Source of the DNA: Sinohyriopsis cumingii
Taxonomy: Eukaryota; Mollusca; Bivalvia; Unionida; Unionidae
Direction of reading: 5' to 3'
Length of the DNA stretch: 64,000 nt
Assembly: GCA_028554795.2 (NCBI GenBank)
Contig: CM068824.1
Coordinates: 158,298,289 to 158,362,288, forward strand
Shown here one piece after another: positions 33,124 to 57,708 of this stretch. Numbering within the stretch: the first letter of the stretch is position 1; each line of letters begins with the position of its first letter. A program made the position numbers and the translations under genes. Below the pieces are notes generated by a model that was not told the DNA's origin, did no database searches, and saw nothing but the letters and a program-made list of their open reading frames with translations.

Positions 33124-33490
33124 AGTAGTATATGGGGACACCCTAGGGACAATGGGACTTACCATTAAAAAGACACCTTGGGACACTCTGGGGACAATGG
33201 AAATTTAACATGGGAGAAATTGCTGGGACACTCTACGGACAAGGGGAATTAACCTGGGAATCTATTTTGGGTCAGTCTAGGGACAAGGGAAAATTAACAT
33301 CGGAGAAAAAAGCAATTCTAGGGACAAGAGGAATTGAACATGGGATTTTTTTTAAAAAAATCAAAAAAAAAAATAAATAAAATAAAATAAAATAAAAATA
33401 AAAAAAAATATAAAAAGGGGTAGGCAATTGAAAGTCTATCTCTTTTCGAGAAATGTGAGTGGCCCTGAAAAGGGCCTTTGGGTTTATATA
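33124..33490 (+). repeat. Left terminal inverted repeat of element 2
   Basis: It matches the reverse complement of 57343-57708. The outer 200 bp is built of diverged units with GGGACA(A/C)-GGGAATTAACATGGGA character; then comes an A-rich segment and a shared inner part (GGGGTAGGCAATTGAAAGTC) ending in a histone-like hairpin. Confidence 0.9.
33461..33476 (-). terminator. Histone-like 3' stem-loop (minus strand, left TIR)
   Basis: On the minus strand the sequence reads AAAGGCCCTTTTCAGGGCCA. It has a six-base-pair stem, a four-base UUUC-type loop, AAA before it, and a purine-rich GAAAAGAGATAG about 15 bases after it. That matches the consensus of replication-dependent histone pre-mRNA 3' ends (stem-loop plus U7-binding downstream element). 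It would end the small minus-strand gene at 33543. Confidence 0.7.
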
Positions 33491-33542
33491 TGCCCTTAAC
33501 ATAAAGGGCATCTGTGACTTCTTCTTGTCCTTAGGCTTCGTC

Positions 33543-33689
33543 TCACTGTAGGACCGTAAAAATCAGGACTCTTTTGAGGCATCCTTGCCTCTCCACGTAA
33601 ATCCTACGTATCCATAGGTTGCTGGCGGTCCTATGGACAACTGTCCATTCGGATCGGACATACATCGGTATGTCCGTCCTGAACATCAT
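33543..33689 (-). CDS. Possible small basic protein at the left end of element 2
   Basis: The product has 48 residues from the ATG at 33689. It is basic and aromatic (SEWTVVHRTASNLWIRRIY). A TATA-like CTATAAATAAG lies about 90 bp upstream on the minus strand (near 33772-33782), and a histone-like hairpin lies 67 bp downstream. That promoter/terminator framing is the only reason to list it; the protein matches nothing I know. Confidence 0.3.
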   Translation of the reverse strand: MMFRTDIPMYVRSEWTVVHRTASNLWIRRIYVERQGCLKRVLIFTVLQ

Positions 33690-33855
33690 CGAAGACACAA
33701 GGGTTGATGATTCGACTGTGGTCCACACCTTGAGTCGTCGAGAACAGGTAAATCAATGCAGTGAACTGCGCTTATTTATAGGTAGAGGAAGGATTGAAAC
33801 GGATTGAGTTCATTGACCAATCCAAACACGCGTTACAAAAGTCAGTCAGCTCGCA

Positions 33856-33900
33856 TCCAATCAGAAGTGAACAGTCTGTGACGTCACGTGGTCTATATAG
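33856..33900 (+). promoter_or_regulatory. CCAAT / CRE / E-box / TATA promoter of the 33950 gene
   Basis: CCAAT at about 33857, a perfect CRE/ATF palindrome TGACGTCA at 33879-33886 overlapping an E-box CACGTG (33885-33890), and a TATA box (CTATATAG, 33893-33900) line up 50-95 bp before the ATG. This is the spacing of a conventional RNA polymerase II promoter. Confidence 0.65.
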
Positions 33901-33949
33901 ATTCGCTACCTCCTGTGTGCAGTCAATCGATGCGAGACAGTGATTCAAC

Positions 33950-34501
33950 ATGACGGAAACTCAGAAAACGATCCATTGGGGTGCACCAGCAGTGGAGACT
34001 ACACAAGGGAACCCGGACTTACTTTCAGAAGAGGTAAATTGGGATTTTGTGGATTTTCTCTCCTCGCAAGAATTTGTTCCGGAACCTTCGTCACCTTCAT
34101 TACCACACGTGGAGAATTTTAGACAGAGACAGAAAGAAGAATTGGAGAAATTTATAAAACGACAAAAGGAAGCGGAACAAGCTTTTCTTTTACAGCAACA
34201 ACAGCAAGAAGAGTTAAGAAAAAAACAACAACAACAAGAAGAAGCAGCAGCAAAGAAACAAGAGGGTGAAAATCAAACGGTCACGGTACTGTTAGACATT
34301 TTAGCGGAGTTAAGAAGTCTGAAACAAATGTATCAGACTTCCTTATCACGACCGAAGAGAATACGACCTTCCCGAGCTAAACACGCCAACCCTGTGACTA
34401 AGCCTACCCTACCACCCTTAGTGATTTCAGCCAAATCATCATCATCAGAAGTAGGCCTCGGCCGTGGCAAAGGCGTAAGGCAGTTAAAGTTGATTGCTTA
34501 A
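33950..34501 (+). CDS. Glutamine-rich coiled-coil accessory protein
   Basis: The product has 183 residues. An acidic N-terminus (SEEVNWDFVDFLSSQEF) is followed by a Gln/Lys/Glu coiled coil at about residues 60-115, a leucine-rich helix (VTVLLDILAELRSLKQMYQ) and a basic Ser/Gly tail. The reading frame is intact although the core genes of the element are broken. A full CCAAT/CRE/TATA promoter precedes it and a histone-like hairpin follows 25 bp after the stop. No family recognised; a regulatory DNA-binding or scaffold role is possible. Confidence 0.7.
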   Translation: MTETQKTIHWGAPAVETTQGNPDLLSEEVNWDFVDFLSSQEFVPEPSSPSLPHVENFRQRQKEELEKFIKRQKEAEQAFLLQQQQQEELRKKQQQQEEAAAKKQEGENQTVTVLLDILAELRSLKQMYQTSLSRPKRIRPSRAKHANPVTKPTLPPLVISAKSSSSEVGLGRGKGVRQLKLIA

Positions 34502-34526
34502 ACTCACCCCTACACCAAAAACCAAA

Positions 34527-34542
34527 GGCCCTTTATAGGGCC
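34527..34542 (+). terminator. Histone-like 3' stem-loop after the 33950 gene
   Basis: AAAGGCCCTTTATAGGGCCA with a six-pair stem, TTAT loop, ACCCA directly after, and a purine tract CGAAAAAAGATAGAC about 12 bases on. The flanks match the inner TIR sequence, so the unit was copied from or to the TIR. Confidence 0.65.
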
Positions 34543-34790
34543 ACCCACTTCTCTCGAAAAAAGATAGACTTTCAATTGCCAATAACTCAAAAACAAAAAA
34601 ACAAAAAAAAACATCTTACCCATATAGGACGTGTATATGAGTGCGTGAGTGTAGCTTCTTATTTAAAATCAAAACTCAAAGACACTTACCTTTTTATGCC
34701 TAATTTATTCTTTTATCAATAGTTACAATCCAATTCACAATTCACAACAGAGCACTTTAAAAAGTACATTCACTTCTTCTGTCTCACTGT
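34543..34790. other. AT-rich spacer
   Basis: A-rich tract followed by unremarkable sequence between two genes that converge on it; a downstream poly-A signal for the minus-strand CCHC gene may lie near 34700-34760. No gene. Confidence 0.5.
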
Positions 34791-35252: not shown

Positions 35253-35305
35253 CGTTGTGCTCGGTTAGAGAGTGAAATGAATAGTGAAAGGACAAGACAC
35301 ACACC

Positions 35306-35386: not shown

Positions 35387-38300
35387 ATGAAACGATCCAA
35401 TTCATTTGAGAAGAAAGAAGAAGAAAGTAAGAGGCAGAAACGTGATATATCGCCTCGTACCAGAGCTGAAGTCTTGGCACAAATTCATGCCAGTGATTTT
35501 GAAGAGGAGATGAGTGAACCAGAATCCAAACCCTCTAAACAAAGTTCACCACCCTTAGTTAACCCTGAAAAGTACTATGACATTCGAGAGACAGAAAAGC
35601 GCTCCTCTAGAAAATTTAGAACCACGGCTTACAAATACACGGTGAAGTTTAAAGATTTCAAGGCCGAAGTACCCTTAGAGAAAGTAGAAGGGTTCATCAC
35701 CGGGATGTGGGATTCTTTACTCACCACACTCAAGCGACAATGTCAACCCAAAGAAGACGATCGCTTGAGACTTTCCATACAACACGACGGTTTGAAATCC
35801 CCTGTTTGGATCGAGTTTAGCACCCCTGCAGAATTGACCGCTTCCAAAGTCATGGACAAGATTCAACACGTGCAACAATCCAATGACCAGTTTGACATCA
35901 CCGATGGAAAAGCCACACTGGACATGACCCACGTCTCTCCTCCTCAAGGGACTGGACGCAAAAAGATGTTATTGGTGCACGAGCTTCGCAGCACCAAAAC
36001 AAGTCTCGTCCGAATTCACAACCCTCAAGACTAGATGTGTTTAGCCAGGGCTATCGTGGTGGGACGAACCTATGCCAACAAAAACGACACGGTAGAATGG
36101 AAAAGAGCCTGGGAGAATATTCGAAAATCGGACCGAGCCAAACAACGAAGTGAAGCAGAATTCCGGTTGCAACAAGCCGACTTGCCCAAAGACACACCCT
36201 GCGGCATTCCTGAAATGCAAAAATTGCAAGATGTCCTAGCTCCACGCTACACCTTGAAAGTGCACCCTCAAGAAATGCGTGGGCCTCTGTTGTTTCGAGG
36301 GAAAGACTTTAAGGATGGAAAATACATTCACGTCTATCATCACGATGACCATTTTGATACCATTACCAGTATCACCGGATTCCTGGGATACAGTTATTAT
36401 TGTGAGAAATGTGACTATGGCTATAAAAATCGAGAACAACACAAACATTGCGGATCGAAATGCTCAGGATGTTTGACCTCTCCACCCTGTCTGAGCAAAG
36501 GGCAAAAACAAGTGCATTGTCCAGCTTGTCAGCGCACGTTTGTCAGTCCTACCTGTTACCAACAACATCTGAAGACGCAAGGTTCACAGCAGAAATGTGC
36601 CTGTCAACTGCTGAGATTGTGCCCTACGTGTGGACAAGGTCTACGTACCAATAGTACCAAGGCACACGTATGTTCAGGAAAGAAAAATTGTCACATTTGT
36701 CACCACATCGTGGACTTGGAACAACAATGCTACGTACAAAAATACCAACCCCCACCAGAGAAAGAGGATGGACACAAGAAGAAAGGCAATTTCATCTTTT
36801 TCGATTTCGAATGCATGCAAGAGACCGGTATTCAAATTCCTAATTTCTGCGTGCCTCATCGAGCGTGCGAGAAGTGCATTCAGGAACCTATCTTCAGTCA
36901 TTGCCCTCACTGCAGTAAGATTCCCAGAGGGCGTGAAAAAATCTTTCGAGGACCGGATACGTTAGCCGATTTTGCACAATGGGTCTTAGACCCCATCGAC
37001 AAGACGTGGAGCCAAGAGGACATCGAACGTTACGGAGATTGTCATCGTCATGCCACAGTGATGGCTCACAATTTCTCCGGATACGATGGACAGTTTCTTT
37101 TGAGGTACTATACGGAACATGGTACCGAACGTCCTAAAGTGATTTTGAACGGAGCCAAAATCATTTCCATGCAAGTGGGACAAGTACAGTTTAAAGATTC
37201 GATGAGCTATTTGGCCATGCCTTTGAGTCGAATGTCTAAAACATTTGGAATGACAGAAATGGCAAAAGGGTACTTTCCACACTTTTTCAATACGGAAGCC
37301 AATCCACACACCGTTCTACCCCATTTGCCTGAGGCTCACTATTACGACCCTGACAACATGCATACCGAACAACGAGACGCTTCTACGCTTGGTACCAGGC
37401 TCACGCCTCCGGACCTTTCGACTTTCAGGAAGAAATGCTAAAGTATTGTCGTTCCGACGTGGACATTTTACGACGTTGCTGTGGAAAATTTCGAGAACTG
37501 TTCATGGAACACGGAGGGGTCGATCCTTTGAAAGAAGCTTGCACCATTGCCAAAGCGTGTTCCTTAGTGTATCGACAACGATTCATGCCTGAAAACACCG
37601 TAGCTGTCATCAGTCCTCAAACGACCAACTATGTCAAACGTCAATACTCGGTCAAAGCCCTACGCTGGTTACATTACTTGTGCAACAAGGAAGACAAATG
37701 GATTCAGCATGCCGGCAACGGAGGGGGCGAAAAGACCATTGGAACGCATTCGGTCGATGGCTGGGACTTAGAAAATTCCAAGATCGTGTACGAGTTTAAC
37801 GGTTGCTTATTTCACGGATGTCCTGTCTGTTACCCTGACCGTGACACTAAAAATCAGTTTTTACAACGAACCATGGAAGACTTGTACCAGGACACTTGTC
37901 AGCAACGCCTGAAGTTAGAACAGGAAGGATACCAAGTAGTGGAAATGTGGGAACATGAATACGATCACCGTTTGAAAACCGATCCCGAATTTAAACGCCT
38001 CGTGGAAAGTTACCAGTTCATGGACCCCCTGAACCCAAGGGATAGTTTGTACGGAGGAAGGACCAATGCCACCTGTTTGCTGTACCAAGCCGACGAAGAG
38101 AAAGGAGAAGAAATCAAATACTTGGACGTGTGTTCGCTGTATCCCTACGTGTGCAAATATTGTCGCTTTCCTGCAGGGCACCCACAATTGTTGACGGAAC
38201 ACATCGACCTGAAAAACATTCGACAATACGAAGGCTTGATCAAGTGCAAAGTTTTGCCTCCCGCGGACTTGTACCATCCCGTCTTACCTCACCATTGCCA

Positions 38301-39454
38301 AGGCAAACTGATGTTTCCTTTGTGCCGTACTTGTGCCGAAACGTGCAACCAAGACCAACCTTGTCAGCACACCCAGGAAGAACGGGCTTTGACGGGAACC
38401 TGGGTCAGCGCAGAATTGTTCAAAGCTCTGGACATGGGATACCAACTGTTAGAAGTGTACGAAATTTGTCACTTTTCCAAGACACAACAATATCACAAGG
38501 GTGACCCCACTCAGAAAGGCATTTTCGCAGACTACGTGGATGCCTTTTTGAAACTGAAGCAAGAAGCCAGCGGCTATCCTTCCTGGTGTAACACTCCCGA
38601 AGACCAAATACATTTCAAAGAGAAATACTGGGCACAAGAAGGCATTACTTTAGATCACATCGAGAAAAACGAAGGCAGGCGATCGTTTGCCAAAGTGATG
38701 TTAAATTGCTTGTGGGGTAAAATGGCACAGCGACCGTGTTTACCCAAAGACGGAATATTTGACAGAACCTTCCCGCTACTTTCAGATGATTCACGACAAA
38801 ACCAAATACATGAAACACGTGGACGTCGTTCGAGAGGATTTGATCTTGGTCAATTACGAAGAAGATCTGGACTTTGTACAAGACGACCCTTTTGGAAATG
38901 TCATTATTGCAGCTTACGTGACAGCTCATGCTCGCTTAAAATTGTAGGAAGCTTTAGAACTGTTAGGGGAACGCGTCCTGTACTTTGACACGGACAGTTG
39001 CATTTACATCCATCACCCGAGTCAACATCACCCTGACATCGAAGGAGACCGTTTAGGAGCCTAGACAGACGAGCATCCCGACGACAAGATTCTAAGTTTC
39101 GTCAGTGGCGGTCCAAAAAATTACGGCTACGAATACCGGGACAAACAAGGAGAAGTGCACACGAAGTGTAAAGTGAAAGGATTGACTCTGAATTATCGTA
39201 CCAGTCGAGTGGTGAACTTTGGGGTATTGAAAGAAGCCTTGCAATCTGGAGAGGATGAACACTTTCAAGTGACCACCTATCAACCCAACAAGATTGTACG
39301 TTTACCCACTCACCACAATGTCAGACGACCCTTGGAAAAAGTCTGTCAAATCGTGTACCAGAAGCGAGTGCGACTTCCCAATCATTTCACCTTACCGTAT
39401 GGACACTTCGGTATTGGTCCGTATATAAGAAGGAACCCTAGGCAAGATCGATAG
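35387..39454 (+). pseudogene. Protein-primed family B DNA polymerase (Polinton PolB), broken
   Basis: All palm and exonuclease landmarks are present in order: FFDFEC (Exo I), HNFSGYDG (Exo II), YCRSDVDIL (Exo III), LDVCSLYPYV (motif A), KVMLNCLWGK (motif B) and YFDTDS (motif C). A GGPKNYGY segment follows, as in Polinton PolBs. An N-terminal domain with several zinc-like Cys/His clusters (36400-36920) precedes the exonuclease. Five lesions break it: TAG at 36032-36034, a frame change at about 37370-37430, a frame change at about 38745-38760, TAG at 38945-38947 and TAG at 39062-39064. Replication enzyme of the element, not functional as read. Confidence 0.9.
39421..39430 (+). promoter_or_regulatory. 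TATA box for the gene at 39487
   Basis: GTATATAAGA overlaps the 3' end of the PolB frame and lies about 60 bp before the next ATG. Confidence 0.55.
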
Positions 39455-42755: not shown

Positions 42756-43865
42756 ATGGAAAAAGTCTTAGCCAGCATTTACTACGATCCGTCCCATCCT
42801 GTAGGTTACGCAGGAGTTCAAAAATTGTATCGTGCTCCCAAAACGCGACTGAAAAGTCTCCGTTTACCTCAAGTGCAACGATGGTTACAAGACCAAGCTA
42901 CCTACACGTTACACAAACCCATTCGACGCAAGTTTTCCAGAAGTCACACCCAAGTGGAAGGCATCGATCATCAATGGCAAGCCGATTTAGCCGATGTCTC
43001 TCATTTGGCCAGCTACAATCGTGGCTACAAATATTTGTTTTGTGTCATCGACGTCTGTTCCAAATTTGCCTAGGTCGTACCCTTGACTTCCAAATCGAGC
43101 AGCGAGTTAGTGCAAGCCCTGCAACGAGTGTTGAAACAAAGCAGTCGTCACCCTCTTCGATGGCAAACGGACAAAGGCACCGAATTTCTGAACCAAGCTT
43201 TCCAAAAAGAATTAAAGAAACGTGACATTCATTTTTTTACCACCGAGAATCCCGAAACCAAAACCAGCATCGTGGAACGTTTTCAACGCACTTTGAAAGA
43301 ACGCATGTGGAAATATTTTACGCATCACCACACTCTGAAGTACATCGACATCTTACCGCACCTGGTGCAAGCGTACAACCAATCTTACCATCGAAGTATC
43401 AGACGTGCCCCGCAAGAGGTGACTCCGGAAAACGAAGTGTTGGTGTTTGAGCGCCTGTTTGGTACGTCCCCGACGAGGGCTGTCCCCAAGAAAAGTGGAG
43501 TGTTGACCGTAGGAGATTAGGTGCGCATTGGCAAAACCAAACGCACTTTCGACAAAGGTTACTTACCTAACTGGACGACCGAATTGTTTCGTGTCACTGA
43601 ACGAGTGCATGGCCGTCATCCTGCCGTCTATAAATTGGAAGACGTGAACGGAGAAGTGCTCAAAAGAACGTTTTACTTACCCGAGTTACAACGTGTCACC
43701 AAAAAAGAAGACGACGTGTACGACATCGAAAGCTTTCTCGAACGCAGAACCCGTAAAGTGGGCAAACGACGTGTCAAAGAAGTCAAAGTACGTTGGAAAG
43801 GATATCCACCCAGTTTTGATTCTTGGATCGACGCTTCGCAAGTCATCGACTATAAAAAGAAGTGA
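42756..43865 (+). pseudogene. RVE integrase with C-terminal chromodomain, two TAG stops
   Basis: One frame runs through with TAG at 43071-43073 and 43518-43520. The DDE triad is intact: WQADLADV, WQTDKGTEF and SIVERFQRTLKER. The zinc-like N-terminal part is short. After a GYLPNW segment, a chromodomain closes the protein (YDIESFLERR, VRWKGYPPSFDSWID), a targeting module typical of Polinton integrases that recognises histone marks. The first stop sits where family members usually have tryptophan (inference), suggesting a TGG to TAG change. Confidence 0.88.
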
Positions 43866-45212: not shown

Positions 45213-45467
45213 TTTTTTTTTTTTTTTTTTATTAACCCCGTAATAGGTTGACCACTGGGTCGGGGGACCATCCCAGGATCACCTTACAATCAAACATTTC
45301 TGGTTATCAGATAATCTAGGGATAATAAATATAATCTACAGAGAAAGTAAAAAAGAAACACACACACACACACGCATATACACATGCATATGGCACAAAA
45401 TCTAGGTGACATGGCTTTTGTGATATTACAGTATTTTGTTCCTGTTTACCCTCAAATCAGAGACAAG

Positions 45468-48400
45468 TTAAATGTTCATTGTTGAGGTCCATTTTTGAAG
45501 AAATTGGTCCTCTTTTTTATTTACCTTGGCAGTGTAATTTTCAATGTTCTTATGCATTGCAACTATTTGCTTAAAAGCAAAAATAGAAGGATTTTTCATA
45601 TTGAATCTGCAAGTATAAATATAATATTTTGCCAAAATAAGCAGAAAATTACCCAAACTGTCCAGTTGTTCACTTCCTAAAAATGTTTCTTTTTTGGACA
45701 GATGTACAATATTTGGGCAAAAAGGTGCAAAAACTTCAATAAAACGGTACCAAAACTGTGAAGTAATACTGCAGTCATAAAAGAGATGCTCAATACTTTC
45801 AGTTTCACTCTTACAGAAAGTACATTTGTTGTCATCAAATATGTTAATTCTTTTAAGAAAATCATTAGTAGCGATTATTCTATGGATTAATTTAAAGTTA
45901 AAAGAGATCAACTTGGTATCCTTGGTACAGCATTTTGCCCGGCTATATATACCAGACCACTGCTCACTACTTATATTTTTATTTAATACTTGCATCCAAG
46001 TTTCTTGCTTCGCAGTGTGTTGCCTTTTAGCTTCCTGTAAAAGATCTTTGTAAATAAACTTGAGTGAATCTTGTTTTCGCAAGTTCGTTATTTTATCCTC
46101 CTGCTTATCAAAATTATTATGTACTAGGTGGTTTTTTATGGCATCTTTCCATGCTTTAGGAATTCTGGATATTAAGGAGAAGTATTTCAAGAAATCATCG
46201 CTTCCAGTTTTTTGTTTTATTATCTCAAAAGGTATTAAATTACCGTGAACATCTACTAGATCGTTCAGAATTTCAAAACCAACTTCTGTCCAGGATTTGT
46301 ATTGATAGATCATTTTAGGGGGGACAAAATTTAAAATACTCATGGATAGATACTCGTTAGGATTTTGCGGTTCTTCTTTCCATTTAGATACTGCCAAAAT
46401 TACATCTCTCCAAAAACTGTTTTTAATGAACTTACAAAATTCTTCTAATTTCCTTCTCCCTAAATTCCAAATATCCTTTTTATTTCTGAGTATAGTTGTA
46501 TTGACTAAGTTCTGCCACGTTCCATTTTCCTTTTCCAGCAATCTTTTAACCCATCTTATCTTAATATACCTAATGAATGAAAATATGTGTATCATATTTA
46601 GTCCTCCCTCGTTTTCTGGGGAAACTAGTATATCACGTTTTATTCTCTCTACTTTTCCACCCCATACAAATTTAAATAACATGCGATTTAGTTCTGCTTC
46701 AACTTTTGCTGATGGGTTAGGAAGTGCTGAAAAAAGATGTATGAATATGGGCAGAACAAGAGTCTTTACAACAATTACTTTACCAACTATTGATAGATGT
46801 CTTTGACTCCAGCTTGCCAGTATTCGTTTTGCCTTTGTTAGTTTCTTCATATAATTGATTTCCACCATCTGTTGTAAATCTGGAGAAAATTCTATGCCAA
46901 GGAGTGTAAAGTTAGAAGAGGACCAAATTAGGCCCATTTCGGGACATATTCTTTCATTAGAAAATTTCCTGTTTCCAATCCAAATAGCTTTTGTTTTTGT
47001 TATGTTACATTTAAGTCCCGATAATAGAGAAAAACCTTGCAAGATATTCATAGTTGCTTCAAGAGAAAAACTAGATCCATCAAGAAGAATAAAAGCGTCA
47101 TCGGCATACTGACCCAATTTATATTCACTGGCGTCAAAGATTACTCCCCGTACATCCACGTTTTGCTTTAAAGTTATAGCTAAAATCTCAACTCCAATGA
47201 TAAACAAATAAGGTGCAAGGGGATCTCCTTGACGACATCCTCTTTCAAGTCTGAAAAAAGATGACATATGTCCATTATTTATAACACAACTATTAGAGTC
47301 ATTACAAAACAGTTTAAACCACTTACAAATGGAATCACCAAAATTAAAAGATTGTAGAGCTTCTTCTACAAAGATCCAGTTAATTGAGTCAAAGGCTTTT
47401 TCGAAATCTATTAACAATAATAAACCATATCTGTTTTCATTCTCAAGTTGGTCCATGATATCATATAATAGTCTGGTGTTTTCTCCAATGAATCTACCCT
47501 TCATATATCCTTTCTGAGTATCGCTGATTATTGATGGAAGAACCTTTTTAATCCTAGCTGCAATTGCTCCCGAAGCAATCTTATAATCAGTATTTAAAAG
47601 TGATATAGGTCTCCAGTTTTTAAAATATCTTCTGTCTTTTTCCTCCTTTGGTAGACAGGTGATGACTCCTTGAGTCTGAAAATCTGAAAGTTTTCCTACA
47701 GTATATCCGTAATTTATTGATCTACATATAAATCCCCCCAGAGACTTCCAAAAGAATTTATAGAACTCTACAGTGAATCCATCCGAGCCAGGACTTTTTC
47801 CATTTTCCATCCGTTTTAGAGACATACCAAATTCATTAATTGTAAGCAGACCCTCGCATGATTCTCTTTCCTCTCGACTAAGTTTAATATTGTGATTAAA
47901 AAATCTATTTCGAGTTTCATGAATAGCCTCATCATCAAGCTGAGCAATTCTACTTTTGAACAATTCCATATAAAACTGTTTTTGTGCTTCTAAAATATCT
48001 ATTTGGTCAGATATATTTGTCCCATCATCTAAAATAATTTCCTTTATTGTCTTATTAACATAGTTTCTTTTTTCAAGATTTAAAAAGTACTTTGTGCTTT
48101 TTTCCCCAAATTCATACCATCTAGCTTTAGATCTTAATATAACACCTTCTATGTATTTTTTCCTAGATTCCTCTAATTCTGTTTTTTTTCTCTCTAAATT
48201 TTCCAGAATTTCCCCATTTATGTTATTCGACAGTCCCCCCTGAATTTCTATTATTTCCTGCTCAATTTTCTTTAATTTTTCCCGTTTCTCTTTTGATTTC
48301 CTAATAGAATAACCTATAGTTTCAGATCTTATTTTCATTTTCAAAATTTCAAAGAACATTTGGTCGTTACAGGAAAGAGAAACATGGAGAGAGTCATCTT

Positions 48401-49247
48401 TATTTCCCCCTACATAATATTCATTTACAGTGTCAGTTATACACTTTTTGACCAAATCAGTATACTCAATGTTCCTCAACAGTTGGTTATTAAATTTCCA
48501 ATATCCTTTTCCCCTTGGAAACGTTGAAAACGCCACACTCAAAACAATAGCTGAATGATCAGTCTTGTACCCTGGTAAGATACATGCATCCGCTGTATTC
48601 ATATGAATGTCATCTGATACAAGAAAGTAATCTAGTCTACTTTGTTTCAAGGGAGATTTTTGCCTCCAGGTATACATCTTTAAGTCTTGGTTGGAATTTC
48701 GCCAGGGATCAATTAATTCCAATTCGTTTTTCAGGTCTTGAATCGCTGCCCTAGACTGTTGGTGTTTGTCATGTAAAATATTATAAGTATCCAAATCTAA
48801 GTCTTGAACAGCATTCCAGTCTCCGCACATTATAATTGATGAGTTCTCAAAACATAAAGTCTCCTCCTTTAACTTTCTAAAAAAGCTAGGATTATCATCA
48901 TTATAACCATACAAATTCACGAGGGTTATTCTGTTGCCATTAATTGTAATATCTAAAATAATAAATCTCCCTTGACTGTCACATCTTTCTCTATGAATTA
49001 TAAATTCAAAAGTATTTCTAAAAAATATTGCAACCCCAGCACTCTTACTAGAGCAGTGGCTAAATATACATTTGTATCCCCATTCAGCTGCCCAATATAT
49101 TTCATCGTTCTTTGTACTATGAGTTTCTTGCAAGCATATTATAGATACATTCTTTTGTTTTACCCAGTGAAAAATATCCCTTCGTTTTAAGACTGAACCT
49201 TGCAGGCCTCTAACATTAATAGATATAATTTTTATTTTATTATCCAT
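45468..49247 (-). CDS. LINE ORF2: endonuclease-reverse transcriptase
   Basis: The product has 1259 residues. The APE-type endonuclease carries ISINVRGLQG, CLQETHS, CGDWNAV, RLDYFLVSD and KTDHSAI in order. The reverse transcriptase follows: SPGSDGFTVEFYK, LLIDFEKAFDSINW, GCRQGDPLAPYLF and the catalytic QYADDAF near residue 715. A CCHC-type knuckle near the end (CTFCKSETESIEHLFYDC) is typical of L1/Tx1-like elements. No stop or frameshift, so it may be active, although this copy lacks a 5' end. Confidence 0.92.
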   Translation of the reverse strand: MDNKIKIISINVRGLQGSVLKRRDIFHWVKQKNVSIICLQETHSTKNDEIYWAAEWGYKCIFSHCSSKSAGVAIFFRNTFEFIIHRERCDSQGRFIILDITINGNRITLVNLYGYNDDNPSFFRKLKEETLCFENSSIIMCGDWNAVQDLDLDTYNILHDKHQQSRAAIQDLKNELELIDPWRNSNQDLKMYTWRQKSPLKQSRLDYFLVSDDIHMNTADACILPGYKTDHSAIVLSVAFSTFPRGKGYWKFNNQLLRNIEYTDLVKKCITDTVNEYYVGGNKDDSLHVSLSCNDQMFFEILKMKIRSETIGYSIRKSKEKREKLKKIEQEIIEIQGGLSNNINGEILENLERKKTELEESRKKYIEGVILRSKARWYEFGEKSTKYFLNLEKRNYVNKTIKEIILDDGTNISDQIDILEAQKQFYMELFKSRIAQLDDEAIHETRNRFFNHNIKLSREERESCEGLLTINEFGMSLKRMENGKSPGSDGFTVEFYKFFWKSLGGFICRSINYGYTVGKLSDFQTQGVITCLPKEEKDRRYFKNWRPISLLNTDYKIASGAIAARIKKVLPSIISDTQKGYMKGRFIGENTRLLYDIMDQLENENRYGLLLLIDFEKAFDSINWIFVEEALQSFNFGDSICKWFKLFCNDSNSCVINNGHMSSFFRLERGCRQGDPLAPYLFIIGVEILAITLKQNVDVRGVIFDASEYKLGQYADDAFILLDGSSFSLEATMNILQGFSLLSGLKCNITKTKAIWIGNRKFSNERICPEMGLIWSSSNFTLLGIEFSPDLQQMVEINYMKKLTKAKRILASWSQRHLSIVGKVIVVKTLVLPIFIHLFSALPNPSAKVEAELNRMLFKFVWGGKVERIKRDILVSPENEGGLNMIHIFSFIRYIKIRWVKRLLEKENGTWQNLVNTTILRNKKDIWNLGRRKLEEFCKFIKNSFWRDVILAVSKWKEEPQNPNEYLSMSILNFVPPKMIYQYKSWTEVGFEILNDLVDVHGNLIPFEIIKQKTGSDDFLKYFSLISRIPKAWKDAIKNHLVHNNFDKQEDKITNLRKQDSLKFIYKDLLQEAKRQHTAKQETWMQVLNKNISSEQWSGIYSRAKCCTKDTKLISFNFKLIHRIIATNDFLKRINIFDDNKCTFCKSETESIEHLFYDCSITSQFWYRFIEVFAPFCPNIVHLSKKETFLGSEQLDSLGNFLLILAKYYIYTCRFNMKNPSIFAFKQIVAMHKNIENYTAKVNKKEDQFLQKWTSTMNI

Positions 49248-49967
49248 GAAAACAGCAGAAATTTTACAGATACATATTCTTGTACAGGAATGTATGAAGT
49301 AATTATCACCTTGAGTTTATCATATGCATGGCTTTCACACTCACACTCACACAGAATACAAACATCCATAATAAAATCATCCATGGTGTTACAGTAAAGG
49401 CTGTAGCTTTGGCTGCATTTGACATTGATACAGTATACTATGGACAACAAGTGAAACAACTCCATTTGTGATAACTCTTATGCATCTCTGACAGACCTTT
49501 CTGGAGCTAGAGATAGTTTTGTAAACCAAACGGCACAGATTAAAAAGGATATAAATTACAACTTAATGAATGAAAAAAAAGGGTAAAAGGGAAGAAAAAG
49601 AAAGAGTGAAAGAGCACATACAAGGAAGTGGTGGGTGATTGAATGTATGAGCAAAAAATGTGAGACTGAGAGATTTATCATGGAAGAGTAATGTTGAGAA
49701 AAGTGAGTAAATAACTTAGTAAATGTGTATATGAGAGTATAAGAGTGAAAGATGATTTATAAACTAGTGAGAGAATTTATTAGGGAGAGATATAACAGTG
49801 GACCAGCGAATCATCAGACATATAAATTATGGATAAAATTGGTGAGGGAAAGAAGTGTCTTATAAACAAAATATTAAAACAAACTAGAGTAGAAAAAGGA
49901 GTATAAAAACGAAAGTTCACATACCTATTCGGTCAATTTCATAAGTTCACAGAATTGCTTATTACAC

Positions 49968-50578
49968 TTATAATCTAATTTTCTCATCAATTTCATCATA
50001 GATGTCAAATTTTATCCTTTTTCCTGATTTGGTTTTACCATACACAGATCCATTAAAGTACCATGCCCTGTCAATTTCTTGATGCCTGGATAATTTATTT
50101 ATAAGTTCAGTATTCAGCCTGGTTACATCCTCTACCAGTCTAATTCCTTTGTACTGCAGAAACTCCTTCCGCTTCTTGATAATTGGAAGTTTACAATCCA
50201 GACTCCAGAATTTGACAATCACTGGCCTTGGTTGTCCCTGTCGACCTGGAATCCTATGCACAGCCACTATGTCCCTGTTATCTAAATTAATTTTTGTAAC
50301 TTCCTTCACCAACTTCGGAATTCTTTCTCTCAGATTTTCATTTTCCTCCTCCTCCAGCCCTAAAACTTTTATGTTCAGCTTCCTTGAATATTGTTCGAAC
50401 TGGTTTGAAGCTGCACTTGCTTGCTTTGATCTCCTCTCATAATCTTTCATATCAATCCTCATTTTATCATTTTCCTTCTTTACTTCTTGTAATTTTTCTA
50501 ACAGTTGGTGGTTTTCGAATTCCAGTGAATCCACCCTGTCCATCAACTCTCCTGTCCTCTCCTTTATTACCCTCTCAC
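49968..50578 (-). pseudogene. LINE ORF1, 5'-truncated
   Basis: The frame is open to the insertion boundary with no upstream start. From the internal ATG it gives about 190 residues: coiled coil (LLEKLQEVKKENDKMRIDMK), RRM-like domain (NIKVLGLEEEENENLRERI, DIVAVHRIPGR) and C-terminal domain (RPVIVKFWS). This is the L1 ORF1p nucleic-acid chaperone layout; only the N-terminal portion is missing. Confidence 0.85.
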
Positions 50579-51036: not shown

Positions 51037-52355
51037 ATGATGCACCGAGAGTCTTGCGCTTGTTCCAAGTCGGAACTGGATCTGTTTGCTATGCCCCCCA
51101 CCATGATGACCATGCAAGAATCCCAGTGGGTGGAATTTCATCCCGTCTCCTCTCTGACGGATTCCGCTCCCATCGAGTTTGAAATCAAAGGACAGCCCGA
51201 AGATTACATCGATCTGAATAGCAGTTACCTGTACTTGAAAGTGAAAGTGATCAAAACGGACAACACCAATCCAGGAGGCGATGCTAGAGTAGCTCCTGTC
51301 AACAATTTCATGCATTCCTTGTTCAGCGAAGTGGACTTGTACTTGAATAACAAACTGGTCAGCAGCAGCATGGATACTTACCCATATCGTGCCTACCTGG
51401 AAAATCTCTTGACGTACGGAAAAGAAACCAAGAATACTCATCTGGATGATTGCGTGGTATGGAAACCTGACACGGCAGGTGTAGGCACGTTTAGCGACAC
51501 AGTCCTAACAGAAGATGACAATCCTCACAATGTGGGGTTTAACGACCGTCGTAAGAAAATTCTGCAAGGGCGAAGTTTAGAACTGATGGATCGTTTGCAT
51601 TTGGACAAGTGGTTACAAGAAAAGTATTTGCTGAACGGGGTGGATATCTGTCTGAGACTGAATCGTAGCAGTGCCGCTTTCCATTTGATGGCCCATGCCA
51701 ATGAATACAAAACTATCATTCAAGAAGCCCGACTTTAGGTGTGGAAGTGTTACCTAAAGTGGGAAACGACGTCAGTCAGACGTTGAGCAGAACGACCGCC
51801 AAGTATCCGATACGACGCGTAGAAGTGAAAACGCTCACCATTCCCGCTGGACAGCGATCTATGATCGAAGATCATCTGTCCCAAGGACAGTTACCCAAGC
51901 GTTTGATTGTTGGTATCGTCAGGAATTCAGCCTTCAACGGAACCCACGATCAAAATCCTTTTGAGTTTCAACATTACAATGTGTCCAAGATCGAAGTCAG
52001 TCGCGACGGCAAGAACTTGTGTACCCGACCCTTTGAGCCCAACTTTGGTGTCGCGAAGAATTATTTGAGATCGTACTTGTCCCTGTACGAAGCCACCGGA
52101 CAGTTAGGAACCAACACCAGTCACGATATTTCGTACGACGATTATGCAGGAGGCTACGCTTTGTGGGGTTTTGATTTCACTCCAGACCAAGGCAGTGACG
52201 AGGGACATTTCCACCCTATAAAATCGGGTCAGATTCGTGTGGAACTTCAGTTTGTAAATCCACCTTCGGATCACACAGTGAACGTCCTCCTGTATGCAGA
52301 ATTTGACAATACCATAGAAATCAACAGTTTGAGAGAAGTCATTCTAGACTATTAG
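51037..52355 (+). pseudogene. Polinton major capsid protein, frameshifted
   Basis: The first frame (51037-51738) has the conserved N-terminal jelly-roll landmarks: SSYLYLKVKVIK, PVNNFMHSLFSEVDLYLN and YPYRAYLENLLTYG. The second (51741-52355) has AKYPIRRVEVKT, GQLPKRLIVGIV, NPFEFQHYN and a second-barrel end. The frame changes at about 51736-51741, in the hinge between the barrels. The combined length of about 440 residues is normal for the family. As read, only half a capsid protein would be made. Confidence 0.88.
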
Positions 52356-52891: not shown

Positions 52892-53452
52892 ATGGATACC
52901 TGGGAACTTTATTACCTTTTGAACCACAGTTCGTACACGGCTTCTTGGAATCCTGTTGTATGTGCTAAAGATGAACTCCCTCATCGCAAACCTCAAGACT
53001 ATCTAGCTTATGTCATCAACACGGACGACAGTCATCTCCCAGGAACCCACTGGGTAGCCGTCTACTTTCCTTAAGAAGGATGTGTGGAATATTTTGATTC
53101 GTATGGATTGCCCCCTTTGGAAGACGATATCATTGACTTTATGAGAAGAAATGCTCAGACCACCCGATTCAATAATGTGAAATTACAAGGCACAGATTCC
53201 TTGGTGTGTGGACAGTACTGTGTGTATTTTCTGCATTATCGCAGTCTGGGTTATTCCTTAGAACATTTAGTGACTCGTTTTGATCCTCGTTCTTCTTCTA
53301 CAAACGATGTGAAAGTATATCAATGGTTTTGTGACCATTATGCTTATATTTTGTCTCAAGCTAGGAAACGTAGTGTCCATCAATGGTCTAATGACTTCCA
53401 ACAGTGGAAATCACAATTTCATTCACAACGTTGTCAGCCCTGTCCAAAATAA
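52892..53452 (+). pseudogene. Adenain-type protease of element 2, one TAA
   Basis: One frame carries all catalytic landmarks: GTHWVAV (His), YFDSYGLPP (Asp) and VCGQYCVYF (Cys). TAA at 53072-53074 separates the histidine from the aspartate. The protein is about 187 residues with a Gln/Trp-rich C-terminal extension. The gene follows the 52361 gene after 27 bp. Orthologous to 15105-15545 in element 1. Confidence 0.88.
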
Positions 53453-53698: not shown

Positions 53699-53726
53699 GG
53701 GATGTTTTCCTTCACGTCCGCGCTTT
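53699..53726 (+). promoter_or_regulatory. Cassette promoter box 1
   Basis: GGGATGTTTTCC followed by CACGTCCGCGCTTT. The same box occurs at 54551, 55259 and 56631 at a similar distance before small genes; a TTTAAA lies just after it. Confidence 0.65.
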
Positions 53727-53788: not shown

Positions 53789-54142
53789 ATGTGCTCCAAA
53801 CTAGCTAAGCTCAACGAAGCCTACGTGAATTTGCATAGGGTCAGACACAGTCTGATACCGAAGCCAGAAGAGATAGAGAATGTGAGAATGCTAAAAGTCA
53901 CTGAAGACCTGATAGAAGAGCTCTTCAGAGAAGAAGTGAACAGGGAGAAAGAAGAATGGACAGAGAAGTACAGACTTCAGAAACAGCAGAGAGAGCAGCA
54001 ACAGCAGCAGCAGCAACCTGAACCTGACAGAGGCTTTGTCGATTGTCGTATCGACACCAAAGAGTTCTTCTTCTCTTTCCGAAGAAGCAGACCTATTGTC
54101 AGAAAGTCTATCGTCAGAGGACATCGCATTCTTAGAAACTAA
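53789..54142 (+). CDS. Cassette 1 small coiled-coil protein
   Basis: The product has 117 residues from the ATG at 53789. It begins MCSKLAKLNEAYVNLHRVRH, then an acidic/basic coiled coil with a Gln run and a basic C-terminus (RSRPIVRKSIVRGHRILRN). The N-terminus aligns with the cassette 2 protein (LAKL, then H/L at the same spacing), so the two are paralogues. It is preceded by promoter box 1 and followed by a histone-like hairpin. Intact; function unknown. Confidence 0.65.
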   Translation: MCSKLAKLNEAYVNLHRVRHSLIPKPEEIENVRMLKVTEDLIEELFREEVNREKEEWTEKYRLQKQQREQQQQQQQPEPDRGFVDCRIDTKEFFFSFRRSRPIVRKSIVRGHRILRN

Positions 54143-54169: not shown

Positions 54170-54185
54170 AGCCCTTTTCAGGGCT
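54170..54185 (+). terminator. Histone-like 3' stem-loop, cassette 1
   Basis: AGCCCTTTTCAGGGCT with ACCCA directly after and a purine tract (TAGAAAAGAAATAG) about 12 bases downstream. It starts 27 bp after the stop codon. Confidence 0.65.
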
Positions 54186-54550
54186 ACCCAATACTCTAGA
54201 AAAGAAATAGTATTCCATGTGCCAATGTGTGTAGGTAGAGTAGTGTGAATATAAACACTGACTCTTTTTTTATAGTGTGAGTGTATGTGTTTGTGTATAT
54301 GACTGTGTGTTTGTAAGTGCTCACGTACGTTTGTGTGGATAGTAGATTATGATGAAGTTTTTTTGCAGTTTGACATGTGGGGAGAGTATATTTGGGGTTT
54401 GATTGGATTGCTTTGCGTATGTGGATAGTATATTATTTGTTTAATAAAAATTTTTAGAATAGTGATGGGTAGTATAAAAAGTGAGTGAGTGTTTCTTTTA
54501 GGTCCGCGCGTTTGTTTGGTTATGATCTAGGTAAGATCATTTTTGTTTTA
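54186..54550. other. Cassette spacer, duplicated
   Basis: The stretch GTAGAGTAGTGTGAATATAA, then CACTGACTCTTTTTTT and GCTCACGTACGTTTGTGTGG, recurs at 55040-55170, showing tandem duplication of the whole cassette. A partial promoter box (GGTCCGCGCGTTTG) sits at 54500-54513. Confidence 0.65.
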
Positions 54551-54579
54551 GGGGATGTTTTCCATCACGTCCGCGCTTT
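54551..54579 (+). promoter_or_regulatory. Cassette promoter box 2
   Basis: GGGGATGTTTTCC then CACGTCCGCGCTTTC, one base different from box 1 in the linker. Confidence 0.65.
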
Positions 54580-54642: not shown

Positions 54643-54960
54643 ATGAACACCAGACTAGCTAAACTGCTTGAACTTCATGTACACCTGGAATATGCCAGGC
54701 GTATAGTGAATGAGCTGGCTGCAGAGGCCATCGTAGAAGAGGGAAGGATGAAAGAGGAGGAGAGAAGAAACAAAGAAGAGGAGGAGAGAAGAAACAAAGA
54801 AGAGGAAGAAAAGGAGAGAGGAAATTTCAGAATCCCAGAGACAGAAGATTGGGGTTCTGAAGCCACTTATCCCGCCTCTGCTCTCCCCCAAAAAAGAGTG
54901 AAAAGAGACTGGGGAAGAAGATGTGTGTGTGGTGCCAGGCCAGGAAGGTGCCAGCATTAG
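54643..54960 (+). CDS. Cassette 2 small coiled-coil protein
   Basis: The product has 105 residues from the ATG at 54643. It begins MNTRLAKLLELHVHLEYARR, then a duplicated EEERRNKEEE unit (21-bp repeat twice), and ends in a basic Cys-containing tail (RRCVCGARPGRC). It is a paralogue of the cassette 1 protein. Intact; the internal repeat suggests recent slippage. Confidence 0.6.
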   Translation: MNTRLAKLLELHVHLEYARRIVNELAAEAIVEEGRMKEEERRNKEEEERRNKEEEEKERGNFRIPETEDWGSEATYPASALPQKRVKRDWGRRCVCGARPGRCQH

Positions 54961-54988
54961 ATAGGTGCATCTGGAGTTAAAAACAAAC

Positions 54989-55004
54989 AGCCCTTTTCAG
55001 GGCT
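54989..55004 (+). terminator. Histone-like 3' stem-loop, cassette 2
   Basis: AGCCCTTTTCAGGGCT, ACCCA, then TTTAGAAAAGAAATAG: the same unit as at 54170, 28 bp after the stop. Confidence 0.65.
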
Positions 55005-55258: not shown

Positions 55259-55289
55259 GGGGATGTTTTCCTTCACGTCCGCGCGCTTT
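55259..55289 (+). promoter_or_regulatory. Cassette promoter box 3 (no gene behind it)
   Basis: GGGATGTTTTCCTTCACGTC plus CGCGCGCTTTAA. The retroposon at 55322 and box 4 follow; no small gene lies between. Confidence 0.6.
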
Positions 55290-55311: not shown

Positions 55312-55321
55312 AGTTTTATGT
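55312..55321. repeat. 10-bp target duplication of the composite retroposon (left)
   Basis: AGTTTTATGT, repeated at 56616-56625. Confidence 0.7.
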
Positions 55322-55936
55322 ACATAGGACCACAACCACATAACCCTAACTGCTACCACTGCAGGGTCCCAGAAGACATAGAGCATATTTTTAACAACTG
55401 CCATACACTTGAAAAAGAAAGGGCTAAGTTTAAAGTTAAACAGCATAAAATTGGATCCCCTACAACATACCCAGAATTCTTGATGAACACAAACCCCAAT
55501 ATTAATCTAACATTCAAAAATATCATAAGTTTTATACACGAATTCAATCTACTCAAAAAAATCTAAGAAAGTAAATCAAAGACCAGTTAAAAATATAACA
55601 AATCACTGTTTGGGAATTATGACGGCCGGCTCGGTCTCGTGGGTTCACAGACTGACACAGCCGTTCATAGCCCGAATAATAAAAACCAGTTAAGGACGAA
55701 TATTACAAAATCACTGTTTGGGAATTATGACGGCCTGCTAGGTCTCGTAGGTTCACAAACTGACACAGCCGTTCATACCCCGAATAATAAAAACCAATTA
55801 AGGCCACAAAAAATTAAAATAGGAAAATAGGAATTAATTAAAACAGGACTCCATAATAACATACAAACAACCATAAAAACAAGTTTTCATTCCAAACCAA
55901 TAAGATAGGGAATCAAAATAAATAAGGAATTGATGA

Positions 55937-55968
<32 letters not shown>

Positions 55969-55972
<4 letters not shown>

Positions 55973-56292
55973 TCCTAACCGTCTCCTTGTCTCTTAAACA
56001 ACATCTGGCTGAACTTTTAAATCAAGCTTCCACAGCTATTTCTACTAACATACTCAGCCAAATCCAGGCAATGTTGGCAGACGACACTGAAGAATTTGAA
56101 ACTTCCACGCTGGCAGCGGCCCTGGAAGTATCATCATCCAGCGGCGATGAAGCTGATGAACCTGCACCACCTAAACAGAGTGGAAAAAAGGAAGGCTCTG
56201 TCTACCGGAATATCGGACTGGGAAAGGCAATTGATGATATCAAAAAAGCGGGCCACTTCGTCAATGCCACAAGACCGGGTGTCCTAATGTGA
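55969..56292 (+). pseudogene. Open-frame fragment behind the poly-A run
   Basis: About 107 residues without their own start (the upstream Lys run is poly-A). It contains Ser/Glu-rich text (EVSSSSGDEADEPAPP) and a conserved-looking end (YRNIGLGKAIDDIKKAGHF). It looks like the C-terminal end of a retroelement or viral protein; family unknown. Confidence 0.35.
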
Positions 56293-56433
56293 CCTCATCG
56301 CTGCCGACCAATCGTGGCGGGAGTCACATACTGCTTGGTTTGACACCTGGGGCATTTCAATCCAACTAAGAAACACGAGTGTGTGGTGTGACTATTCCTA
56401 CTCATGTCTATTAGCCTTTCAGTCAGGTTGTTA

Positions 56434-56594
56434 AGGACTAGTTAGTCCTACACCTGAGTGGCTAAATTAAAAAGTACTCTTTGAGTACATAAAAGCCTGG
56501 GGGATGAGGCTCCTTTTCCTTCCCCCAGGAGTAATTAAAAATCACGCAGTGCGTGAATAAAAAAGTGGTACATGTTCAAAAGAACGAAAACCAC
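56434..56594 (+). repeat. Cluster of five hairpins at a retroposon 3' end
   Basis: In order: AGGACTAGTTAGTCCT (56434-56449), GTACTCTTTGAGTAC (56474-56488), CCTGGGGGA paired with TCCCCCAGG (56496-56529), TCACGCAGTGCGTGA (56542-56556) and GTGGT...GTTCAAAAGAAC...ACCAC (56565-56594). An ACTA repeat follows and then the target duplication. Confidence 0.7.
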
Positions 56595-56615
56595 TATAAT
56601 CCAACTAACTAACTA

Positions 56616-56625
56616 AGTTTTATGT
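56616..56625. repeat. 10-bp target duplication of the composite retroposon (right)
   Basis: Exact match to 55312-55321. Confidence 0.7.
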
Positions 56626-56630
56626 CTTAG

Positions 56631-56659
56631 GGGGATGTTTTCATTCACGTCCGCACTTT
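56631..56659 (+). promoter_or_regulatory. Cassette promoter box 4 with TATA
   Basis: GGGGATGTTTTCATTCACGT plus CCGCACTTTC, followed by CTATAAAAC (about 56662), 55-90 bp before the ATG at 56721. Confidence 0.65.
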
Positions 56660-56720
56660 CACTATAAAACTAACAGTGTTTGCCATTGGAGCCCATTCCA
56701 CGGAATAAGCAGACAAGAAG

Positions 56721-57317
56721 ATGCCAGCAGCTTCAGCTTTGTATAACAATCTTATGGGAAGTTGGTATTGGATGGTGGATGGATTGAATGTAGCAGAAAG
56801 GCTTGAACAGGAATGGAGGCATGCAGTGACAAAAGACTTCGTCTCAAGACAAGTAACCAGCCTCCAATTAGCCATCGATATTGTGAAAGAAATGATAGAG
56901 GATGAGGAGAAGAGAATCAGAGGTTTCATTAACCCACCGTATGTGAAAGTGGGCAAGTTGAAAGAAGCCATAGTTTATGTGACGAGTGTAAGGTGTTTTT
57001 TAGAAGACATTGTAGAATGGATAGATTGGTCTTTTGTGAAGTGGGGCTTAGACAAGCTTAAGAAAGCGGAAGAAGTAATGAGGAAAGTGCTGACCGAAGA
57101 GGTCAAGAACATCAAAGAAAAGTGGTCTAGGGAAAGAAATGAAGAAGAAAATAGAAAGAGAAAAGAACACTTCGACAAACTCAACCATAACTGGATAAGA
57201 ATACAGGAGAAATTCAGAGCGCTGGGTCACCCGGACTGGATACCGGAAGCAGAAAAGAAGAAGAAGAAAGGAATGATGGAAAAAATAAGGGGATGGATAA
57301 AGAAGTTAAGGAGTTAG
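56721..57317 (+). CDS. Cassette 4 helical accessory protein
   Basis: The product has 198 residues. It begins MPAASALYNNLMGSWYWMVD and is helical throughout (ERLEQEWRHAVTKDFVSRQV, then KLKKAEEVMRKVLTEEVKNI), with a basic amphipathic end (MMEKIRGWIKKLRS). It is longer than the cassette 1 and 2 proteins and not obviously paralogous. It lies next to the right TIR and is framed by promoter box 4 and a histone-like hairpin. Intact; function unknown. Confidence 0.65.
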   Translation: MPAASALYNNLMGSWYWMVDGLNVAERLEQEWRHAVTKDFVSRQVTSLQLAIDIVKEMIEDEEKRIRGFINPPYVKVGKLKEAIVYVTSVRCFLEDIVEWIDWSFVKWGLDKLKKAEEVMRKVLTEEVKNIKEKWSRERNEEENRKRKEHFDKLNHNWIRIQEKFRALGHPDWIPEAEKKKKKGMMEKIRGWIKKLRS

Positions 57318-57342
57318 AAGAAGAAGAAGAAGAAGAAGAAGA

Positions 57343-57708
57343 AACCCAAAGGCCCTTTTCAGGGCCACTCCAATTTCTCGAAAAGAGATAGACTTTCAAT
57401 TGCCTACCCCTTTTTATATTTTTTTTATTTTTATTTTATTTTATTTTATTTATTTTTTTTTATTTTTAAAAAAAAAACAAAAAAAATCCCATCTTAAATT
57501 CCCCTTGTCCCTAGAATTGCTTTTTTTCTCCCATGTTCAATTCCCCTTGTCCCTAGACTGACCCAAAATAGATTCCCATGTTAATTCCCCTTGTCTCTAG
57601 AGTGTCCCAGCAATTTCTCCCATGTTAAATTTCCATTGTCCCCAGAGTGTCCCAAGGTGTTTTTTAATGGTAAGTCCCATTTTCCCTAGGGTGTCCCCAT
57701 ATACTACT
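57343..57708 (-). repeat. Right terminal inverted repeat of element 2
   Basis: Reverse complement of 33124-33490 with scattered differences (about 5 percent) and changes in A/T-run lengths. It ends CCCCATATACTACT. Confidence 0.9.
57351..57366 (+). terminator. Histone-like 3' stem-loop in the right TIR
   Basis: AAAGGCCCTTTTCAGGGCCA, then about 13 bases later CGAAAAGAGATAGAC. It lies 34 bp after the stop of the 56721 gene and is the mirror image of the left-TIR hairpin. Confidence 0.7.

What the first reader, a model, noticed from the sequence alone, without database searches (positions are those of the whole stretch)
33461..57366. Polinton genes end in histone-type 3' stem-loops
Five hairpins (33461 minus strand; 34527, 54170, 54989, 57351 plus strand) follow small element 2 genes. 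Each has a six-pair stem and four-base loop; three of the five are exact or near matches to the metazoan histone consensus GGYYYUUHUHARRRCC. The plus-strand ones are followed by ACCCA or ACTCC and a GAAAAGA-type purine tract at the distance where U7 snRNA pairs. Known: replication-dependent histone mRNAs end this way, without poly-A, and are made in S phase. Inference: these genes use the histone 3'-processing pathway, tying their expression to host DNA replication. I know of no description of this in Polintons.
Basis: partly seen in the sequence, partly recalled or inferred. Interest (0 to 1): 0.92.

Follow-up and report, generated by a model that had tools for sequence, protein, structure and literature searches.

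The report
Polinton genes built like histone genes
Small genes at both ends of a virus-like jumping element carry the RNA-end signals, and some also a promoter block, of the host's own histone genes, which suggests that the element's genes are switched on and finished by the machinery that makes histones while the cell copies its DNA.

Summary
Observation confirmed. All five hairpins match Rfam RF00032 (histone 3' stem-loop) over its full length: two above gathering, three below (E 4e-5 to 2e-4); no other RF00032 match in 64 kb at E<=5. The element (33124-57708) is a Polinton with a 6-bp target duplication. In the host genome (2.9 Gb) all 75 of 75 scored RF00032 hits lie in copies of this Polinton family (capped, not a census). 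Genes not used as seeds keep a hairpin in 71 of 74 cases; random windows have one in 75 of 2969. The host's H3-H4-H2B-H2A-H1 unit ends each gene with the same kind of hairpin and GAAAAG 13-14 nt later; 142 of 157 Polinton modules have [AG]AAAAG at 13 nt. New: right-end Polinton genes also carry host histone promoter blocks, 24 nt identical to H2B's and 23 nt to H4's. Best reading: these genes borrow replication-dependent histone expression at the 3' end, the right-end ones at both ends. Not shown: RNA ends, S-phase expression, host U7 (not found), SLBP (inconclusive), other host species.

The parts
33124..57708 (.). Polinton (element 2), 6-bp target duplication ATCCCT on both sides
   Evidence: terminal inverted repeats; PolB and ATPase domains
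33124..33485 (.). left terminal inverted repeat with hairpin at its inner edge
   Evidence: 95.8% identical to the right one over aligned columns
57342..57708 (.). right terminal inverted repeat with hairpin at its inner edge
33461..33476 (-). histone-type stem-loop after the leftmost gene
   Evidence: RF00032 33481-33436, 41.0 bits
33436..33447 (-). GAAAAGAGATAG, histone-downstream-element-like tract 13 nt after the hairpin
33543..33689 (-). leftmost small gene (48 aa here; 76-78 aa in 14 of 19 copies read)
33950..34501 (+). small gene g33950 (183 aa)
34527..34542 (+). histone-type stem-loop after g33950
   Evidence: 29.5 bits
34556..34567 (+). downstream purine tract
53700..53723 (+). host histone promoter block A before g53789
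53789..54142 (+). small gene g53789 (117 aa)
54170..54185 (+). histone-type stem-loop after g53789
   Evidence: 30.5 bits
54199..54210 (+). downstream purine tract
54492..54514 (+). promoter block B, 23 nt identical to the host H4 promoter
54554..54577 (+). promoter block A, 24 nt identical to the host H2B promoter
54643..54960 (+). small gene g54643 (105 aa)
54989..55004 (+). histone-type stem-loop after g54643
   Evidence: 31.6 bits
55018..55029 (+). downstream purine tract
55261..55282 (+). first promoter block A before g56721, parted from the second by a later insertion
56633..56654 (+). second promoter block A before g56721
56721..57317 (+). small gene g56721 (198 aa, predicted all-helical)
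57351..57366 (+). histone-type stem-loop after g56721
   Evidence: 37.5 bits
57380..57391 (+). GAAAAGAGATAG, downstream-element-like tract

Best explanation
The small terminal genes of this Polinton family are expressed like replication-dependent histone genes of the host. SHOWN (sequence): each ends in the host's kind of histone stem-loop and downstream element in the host's spacing; right-end genes also carry promoter blocks found at the host's H2B, H1 and H4 genes. INFERRED: the transcripts are bound by SLBP, cleaved through U7 snRNP a few bases after the hairpin, exported without poly(A), and made when host histone genes are active (S phase; perhaps also in germ cells and cleaving embryos). 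INFERRED: the replication and structural gene blocks end instead at ordinary poly(A) signals, so one element uses two 3'-end systems, with the small terminal genes probably an early or regulatory set timed to host DNA synthesis.
For: RF00032 hits. 75 of 75 scored genome hits in Polinton copies. Non-seed genes with a hairpin: leftmost gene 24 of 24, g33950 26 of 28, g54643 20 of 21, g56721 1 of 1; two of the three misses still show the module with a damaged stem. Host histone unit: 5 of 5 genes with RF00032 hits, GAAAAG at 13-14 nt, stop to hairpin 27-38 nt. For g56721, hairpin identity 98% where the ORF is 71% identical (most diverged quarter of 91 pairs). Outer pair G-C in 125 and A-U in 25 of 157 modules, 7 others. 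Promoter blocks: 24- and 23-nt exact matches, 1.5e-6 and 5.9e-6 expected by a simple base count; the tested rest of the window gives at most 16 nt, simple repeats left out. Block A (at most 2 changes) lies upstream in 9 of 9 g56721 and 2 of 2 g54643 matches with 320 nt upstream, and in 0 of 48 g33950, 0 of 51 leftmost, 0 of 26 g35387, 0 of 16 PolB N-terminal, 0 of 1 PolB C-terminal and 0 of 1 integrase matches. AATAAA 112 nt after the gene ending at 53452 and 81 nt after the one ending at 45243.
Against: No RNA evidence. Host U7 not identified: RF00066 gave nothing (65 of 801960 candidates scored, control rang nowhere); of 197 pattern matches 21 were read and none is convincing. SLBP domain not found at E<=1e-3 (exon-wise search, control rang nowhere). 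Three of five window hairpins score below gathering. Copies share descent, so their conservation is not independent; for g33950 the hairpin (97%) is hardly better kept than the ORF (95%), and for g56721 the 8-nt downstream element is at 87%. Left-end genes lack block A.
Confidence: 0.84

Rival explanations
1. The hairpins are DNA structures of the terminal repeats, serving replication or packaging, and resemble histone ends by accident.
For: Two of five lie at the inner edge of the terminal repeats, and the module is shared between both ends.
Against: Three lie outside the repeats; all five are in sense orientation after an ORF; loop, flank and GAAAAG at 13 nt match the host histone genes, which a DNA hairpin would not need; promoter blocks also match.
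Confidence: 0.04
2. Passive capture: the element once picked up pieces of host histone genes, and the signals are hitch-hiking remnants with little use.
For: Exact 23-24-nt identity with host promoters and a 17-nt shared hairpin string suggest exchange with host histone genes.
Against: In g56721 the hairpin persists while ORFs diverge to 71%; four gene families keep it in place; spacer sequences differ from the host's. Capture as origin remains compatible with function.
Confidence: 0.06
3. A virus-type hairpin terminator, as known for mimiviruses and virophages (recalled, not read here), with polyadenylation at the hairpin.
For: Polintons are related to virophages (recalled); hairpins sit shortly after stop codons.
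Against: That rule concerns variable palindromes (recalled); here there is one nearly fixed histone-type sequence plus a downstream element.
Confidence: 0.03
4. Mixed mode (compatible with the best explanation): histone-type processing is used only in some cells or times, and poly(A) sites further down serve otherwise.
For: An AATAAA lies 257 nt past the 54170 hairpin; C. elegans histone genes keep AATAAA signals behind their hairpins (PMC1924863, passages seen).
Against: No RNA data either way; I did not score poly(A) signals behind each hairpin in the copies.
Confidence: 0.2

Closest known systems
Metazoan replication-dependent histone genes (SLBP/U7 3' ends, RF00032)
   Same: Hairpin, GAAAAG-type element at 13 nt, short 3' UTR as in the host's own histone genes; for the right-end genes promoter blocks of H2B, H1 and H4 as well.
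   Different: The proteins are not recognisable histones: no histone motif in any frame of the 75 loci; no Pfam histone hit for four of the five hairpin genes (the 48-aa leftmost ORF was not scanned).
Polinton/Maverick elements
   Same: Terminal repeats, 6-bp target duplication, PolB, ATPase.
   Different: No report of histone-type gene ends in the listings of the searches made.
Hairpin-terminated transcripts of mimiviruses and virophages (recalled)
   Same: Hairpin after the stop codon.
   Different: To my recollection no histone-type sequence and no downstream element.

Membership tests
Polinton/Maverick | long terminal inverted repeats and 6-bp target duplication | tested here: met
Polinton/Maverick | protein-primed type B DNA polymerase | tested here: met
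   PF03175 in 36035-37441 and 37435-38988, in two frames; protein priming itself not tested
Polinton/Maverick | packaging ATPase | tested here: met
   PF01580 25.4 bits, cut-off 24
Polinton/Maverick | retroviral-type integrase | tested here: inconclusive
   rve only 14.2 bits (cut-off 32.6) on the fragment 42756-43073; neighbouring open frames to 43865 not scanned
Polinton/Maverick | double jelly-roll major capsid protein | tested here: inconclusive
   51037-51738 and 51861-52355 gave no Pfam hit
Histone-type 3' end | RF00032 covariance match above gathering | tested here: met
Histone-type 3' end | purine-rich downstream element in the host's own spacing | tested here: met
   [AG]AAAAG at 13 nt in 142, 14-15 nt in 3, absent in 12 of 157 modules; host 13, 13, 13, 14, 14
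Histone-type 3' end | base pairing with host U7 snRNA | tested here: inconclusive
   U7 not identified
Histone-type 3' end | SLBP in the host | tested here: inconclusive
   no PF15247 match at E<=1e-3, exon-wise search, control silent
Histone-type 3' end | cleavage after the hairpin, no poly(A) | not testable with these tools
   no RNA data
Replication-dependent histone promoter | promoter blocks of the host's histone genes | tested here: met
   right-end genes only; not met for the left-end genes
Replication-dependent histone gene | encodes a histone | tested here: not met
   no histone domain in four of the five hairpin genes (fifth not scanned); no histone motif in the 75 loci

The most novel reading that the evidence does not exclude
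A whole family of virus-like mobile elements runs its terminal genes as mock histone genes: histone promoter blocks bring them under the S-phase histone activators (perhaps in the histone locus body), and SLBP/U7 finish their mRNAs, so the element's gene programme and its own DNA synthesis are timed by host chromosome replication.
Probability: 0.6. Interest if true: 0.93.

Novelty: new variant of a known kind. Interest (0 to 1): 0.87.

Why it matters
Histone-type 3' ends are generally taught as the mark of histone mRNAs (my own knowledge). A mobile element that uses them, with host histone promoter blocks, would be a clear case of a selfish element tied to the cell cycle through the histone pathway. 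It gives a direct, testable way to ask when Polintons are expressed, and would explain why poly(A)-selected RNA data could miss these genes.

Tried and rejected
Viral collections: two stem-loop patterns gave 0 contigs; relatives of the PolB part (18), g56721 (27) and the protein at 44512-45240 (119) gave none, so spread beyond this host is untested. Only protein relatives were found, on contigs of 628-1005 bases (5 for g56721) and 1342-7520 bases (12 for 44512-45240), without DNA.

Fold of g56721 (mean pLDDT 80.5) gave no viral match with E<=0.001; its function stays open.

U7: the recurrent pattern match inside the histone repeat was read and rejected: no stable hairpin directly behind it, and pairing with the downstream elements no better than shuffles, best z -1.4. 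One search counted 98 forward and 99 reverse matches but listed only a first part; from that part I read 20 with flanks (18 ending in CTAG and 2 in CTTG); none has a stable G+C-rich hairpin directly behind it.

The likeness of block A to the vertebrate H4 element bound by HiNF-P is recalled; searches did not verify it. A molluscan host is a guess from genome size and chromosome-sized contigs only.

Biases: the 157 modules were picked with at most 3 changes from the hairpin string, and those with at most 2, so conservation is overstated there; the gene labels are rough (its g54643 class is mixed) and are not used; an earlier sorting by tblastn put all 65 modules in one unsorted class. Modules too near a locus end were dropped. 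One search used a rule that allows one broken pair, and searched 260 nt after the leftmost gene against 140-nt random windows.
Full report
THE OBSERVATION. Against Rfam they match RF00032 over all 46 positions: 41.0 bits (33481-33436, minus) and 37.5 bits (57346-57391) above the gathering score of 34; 31.6, 30.5 and 29.5 bits at 54984, 54165 and 34522, below gathering but with E 3.8e-5 to 2.3e-4 for the whole 64 kb. No other RF00032 match appears in the window at E<=5. They are related to each other: all five belong to a ~63-nt module, two lie at the inner edge of the terminal repeats, and two sit in a segment duplicated at 87%. So the count of five overstates independence; the test has to come from other copies and from the host.

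THE ELEMENT. Element 2 runs from 33124 to 57708 with the 6-bp duplication ATCCCT on both sides. It holds a type B DNA polymerase in two overlapping frames (PF03175), a packaging-type ATPase (PF01580) and an inserted LINE on the minus strand at 45468-49247. The hairpin-bearing genes are small ones at both ends: a leftward gene at 33543-33689, then 33950-34501, 53789-54142, 54643-54960 and 56721-57317. The stop codons lie 25-33 nt before the hairpins on the plus strand.

THE REST OF THE GENOME. The window's assembly has 2.9 Gb. RF00032 gave 75 scored matches, all above gathering, out of 589472 first-look candidates, so this is a lower bound; neither the window's own hits nor the known histone-repeat places are among the 75. 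All 75 were read with about 1.5 kb on each side (30 as loci, 45 fetched). All 75 encode relatives of this element's genes and none has a histone motif. Because loci were chosen by a hairpin, I counted genes other than the seed: the leftmost gene keeps a hairpin in 24 of 24, g33950 in 26 of 28, g54643 in 20 of 21, g56721 in 1 of 1; random 140-nt windows of the same loci in 75 of 2969 (the leftmost gene was allowed 260 nt). Two of the three misses show the module with a damaged stem.

THE HOST'S OWN HISTONE GENES. PF00125 found a tandem repeat of about 8.3 kb. One unit (L077) holds H3, H4, H2B, H2A and H1 on one strand, named here from their sequences, each followed by an RF00032 match of 35.0-39.4 bits. 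Stop to hairpin is 27-38 nt, and GAAAAG begins 13 nt after the hairpin in H3, H4 and H2B and 14 nt in H2A and H1. In 157 Polinton modules an [AG]AAAAG element begins at 13 nt in 142, at 14 in 2, at 15 in 1, and is absent in 12. The H2B hairpin is identical to those at 57351 and 33461 over 17 nt. Further downstream, Polintons and some host genes share a loose TTTCAATTTTGCC-like stretch (seen by eye), which might be a longer U7 contact (inference).

SELECTION. Among 14 copies of g56721 (91 pairs) the most diverged quarter has 71% ORF identity but 98% hairpin identity; the 8-nt downstream element is at 87% over all pairs and 89% in that quarter. For g54643 (18 copies) the means are 85% ORF and 94% hairpin; for g33950 (50 copies) 95% and 97%, which is hardly a contrast (copies chosen with at most 2 changes in the hairpin, so this is inflated). 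The outer pair is G-C in 125 and A-U in 25 of 157 modules, with 7 other combinations: a paired change, though probably few events.

A SECOND HISTONE FEATURE. Right-end genes carry a block GGATGTTTTCCNTCACGTCCGC, with small changes. The same block stands before host H2B and, with small changes, H1. Exact shared strings are 24 nt with H2B (host 2230, element 54554) and 23 nt with H4 (host 1401, element 54492), both before g54643. By a simple base count 1.5e-6 and 5.9e-6 such matches are expected; window 1-33000 and 57800-64000 share at most 14 and 16 nt with the unit, simple repeats left out. Block A precedes 9 of 9 g56721 and 2 of 2 g54643 matches with enough upstream sequence, 60-74 nt before the ATG (84-85 nt in the host), and 0 of 48 g33950, 0 of 51 leftmost, 0 of 26 g35387, 0 of 16 and 0 of 1 PolB and 0 of 1 integrase matches. 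The left pair shares a divergent region with CCAAT and TATA boxes (read by eye), which is generic. Block A resembles the vertebrate H4 element bound by HiNF-P; that likeness is recalled. That HiNF-P and NPAT activate H4 genes, and SLBP and U7 process histone mRNA, is in PMC5706932 (passages seen).

MECHANISM. The simplest account is that these genes are expressed as replication-dependent histone genes are. Steps shown by sequence: matching 3' signals in host spacing, upkeep across copies, host promoter blocks on the right-end genes. Steps inferred: SLBP and U7 cleavage, no poly(A), S-phase timing. Genes of the replication and structural blocks may use poly(A) signals (AATAAA at 45324 and 53564), so the element may divide its genes between two 3'-end systems.

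WHAT FAILED. Host U7 was not found: the Rfam model gave nothing with a silent control; a pattern gave 197 matches (98 forward, 99 reverse; reversed-pattern control 44 and 33), of which 20 plus the one in the histone repeat were read, none convincing. SLBP was not found by an exon-wise domain search with a silent control. No relative was found in viral contigs, so generality beyond this host is open. The protein-first, unbiased genome count was asked three times and never answered.

LITERATURE. Ten full-text searches of the open PMC library: no listed paper is, by title and abstract start, about histone-type ends in Polintons or other mobile elements. Two listings were cut (20 of 37 papers, 15 of 414). 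I saw passages of PMC5706932, PMC1924863 and (one reference entry) PMC6713331, nothing more. Subscription papers and preprints are hardly covered.

VERDICT. The parts are known; their union in a mobile element is, as far as these searches reach, not described.

Noticed in passing
window 12137-26923: A second, different Polinton-like element (DJR capsid domain, HNH, helicase, integrase, weak adenovirus-type protease) with inverted end sequences; no RF00032 match.
   Followed up: partly
window 45468-50543 minus: LINE insertion (endonuclease, RT, zf-RVT) inside the Polinton, with an upstream ORF at 49968-50543 that may belong to it.
   Followed up: no
window 55321-56617: Insertion of about 1.3 kb flanked by TTTTATG, with (by eye) a zf-RVT-like piece and a poly(A) run, parting the two promoter blocks of g56721; in five other copies looked at they are 66-70 nt apart.
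   Followed up: partly
window 33543-33689 minus: The leftmost gene is shortened here (48 aa) compared with 76-78 aa in 14 of 19 copies read.
   Followed up: partly
L077 5362-5383 minus: A palindromic U7-like string recurs at the histone repeat's period on several contigs; judged not to be U7.
   Followed up: yes
L077 downstream of the hairpins: Loose TTTCAATTTTGCC-like stretch shared by Polintons and some host histone genes beyond GAAAAG; might be a longer U7 contact.
   Followed up: partly
window 57954-58143 and 31795-32347: 27-nt and 36-nt tandem repeats; the first gives a sub-threshold MIR7526 match.
   Followed up: no
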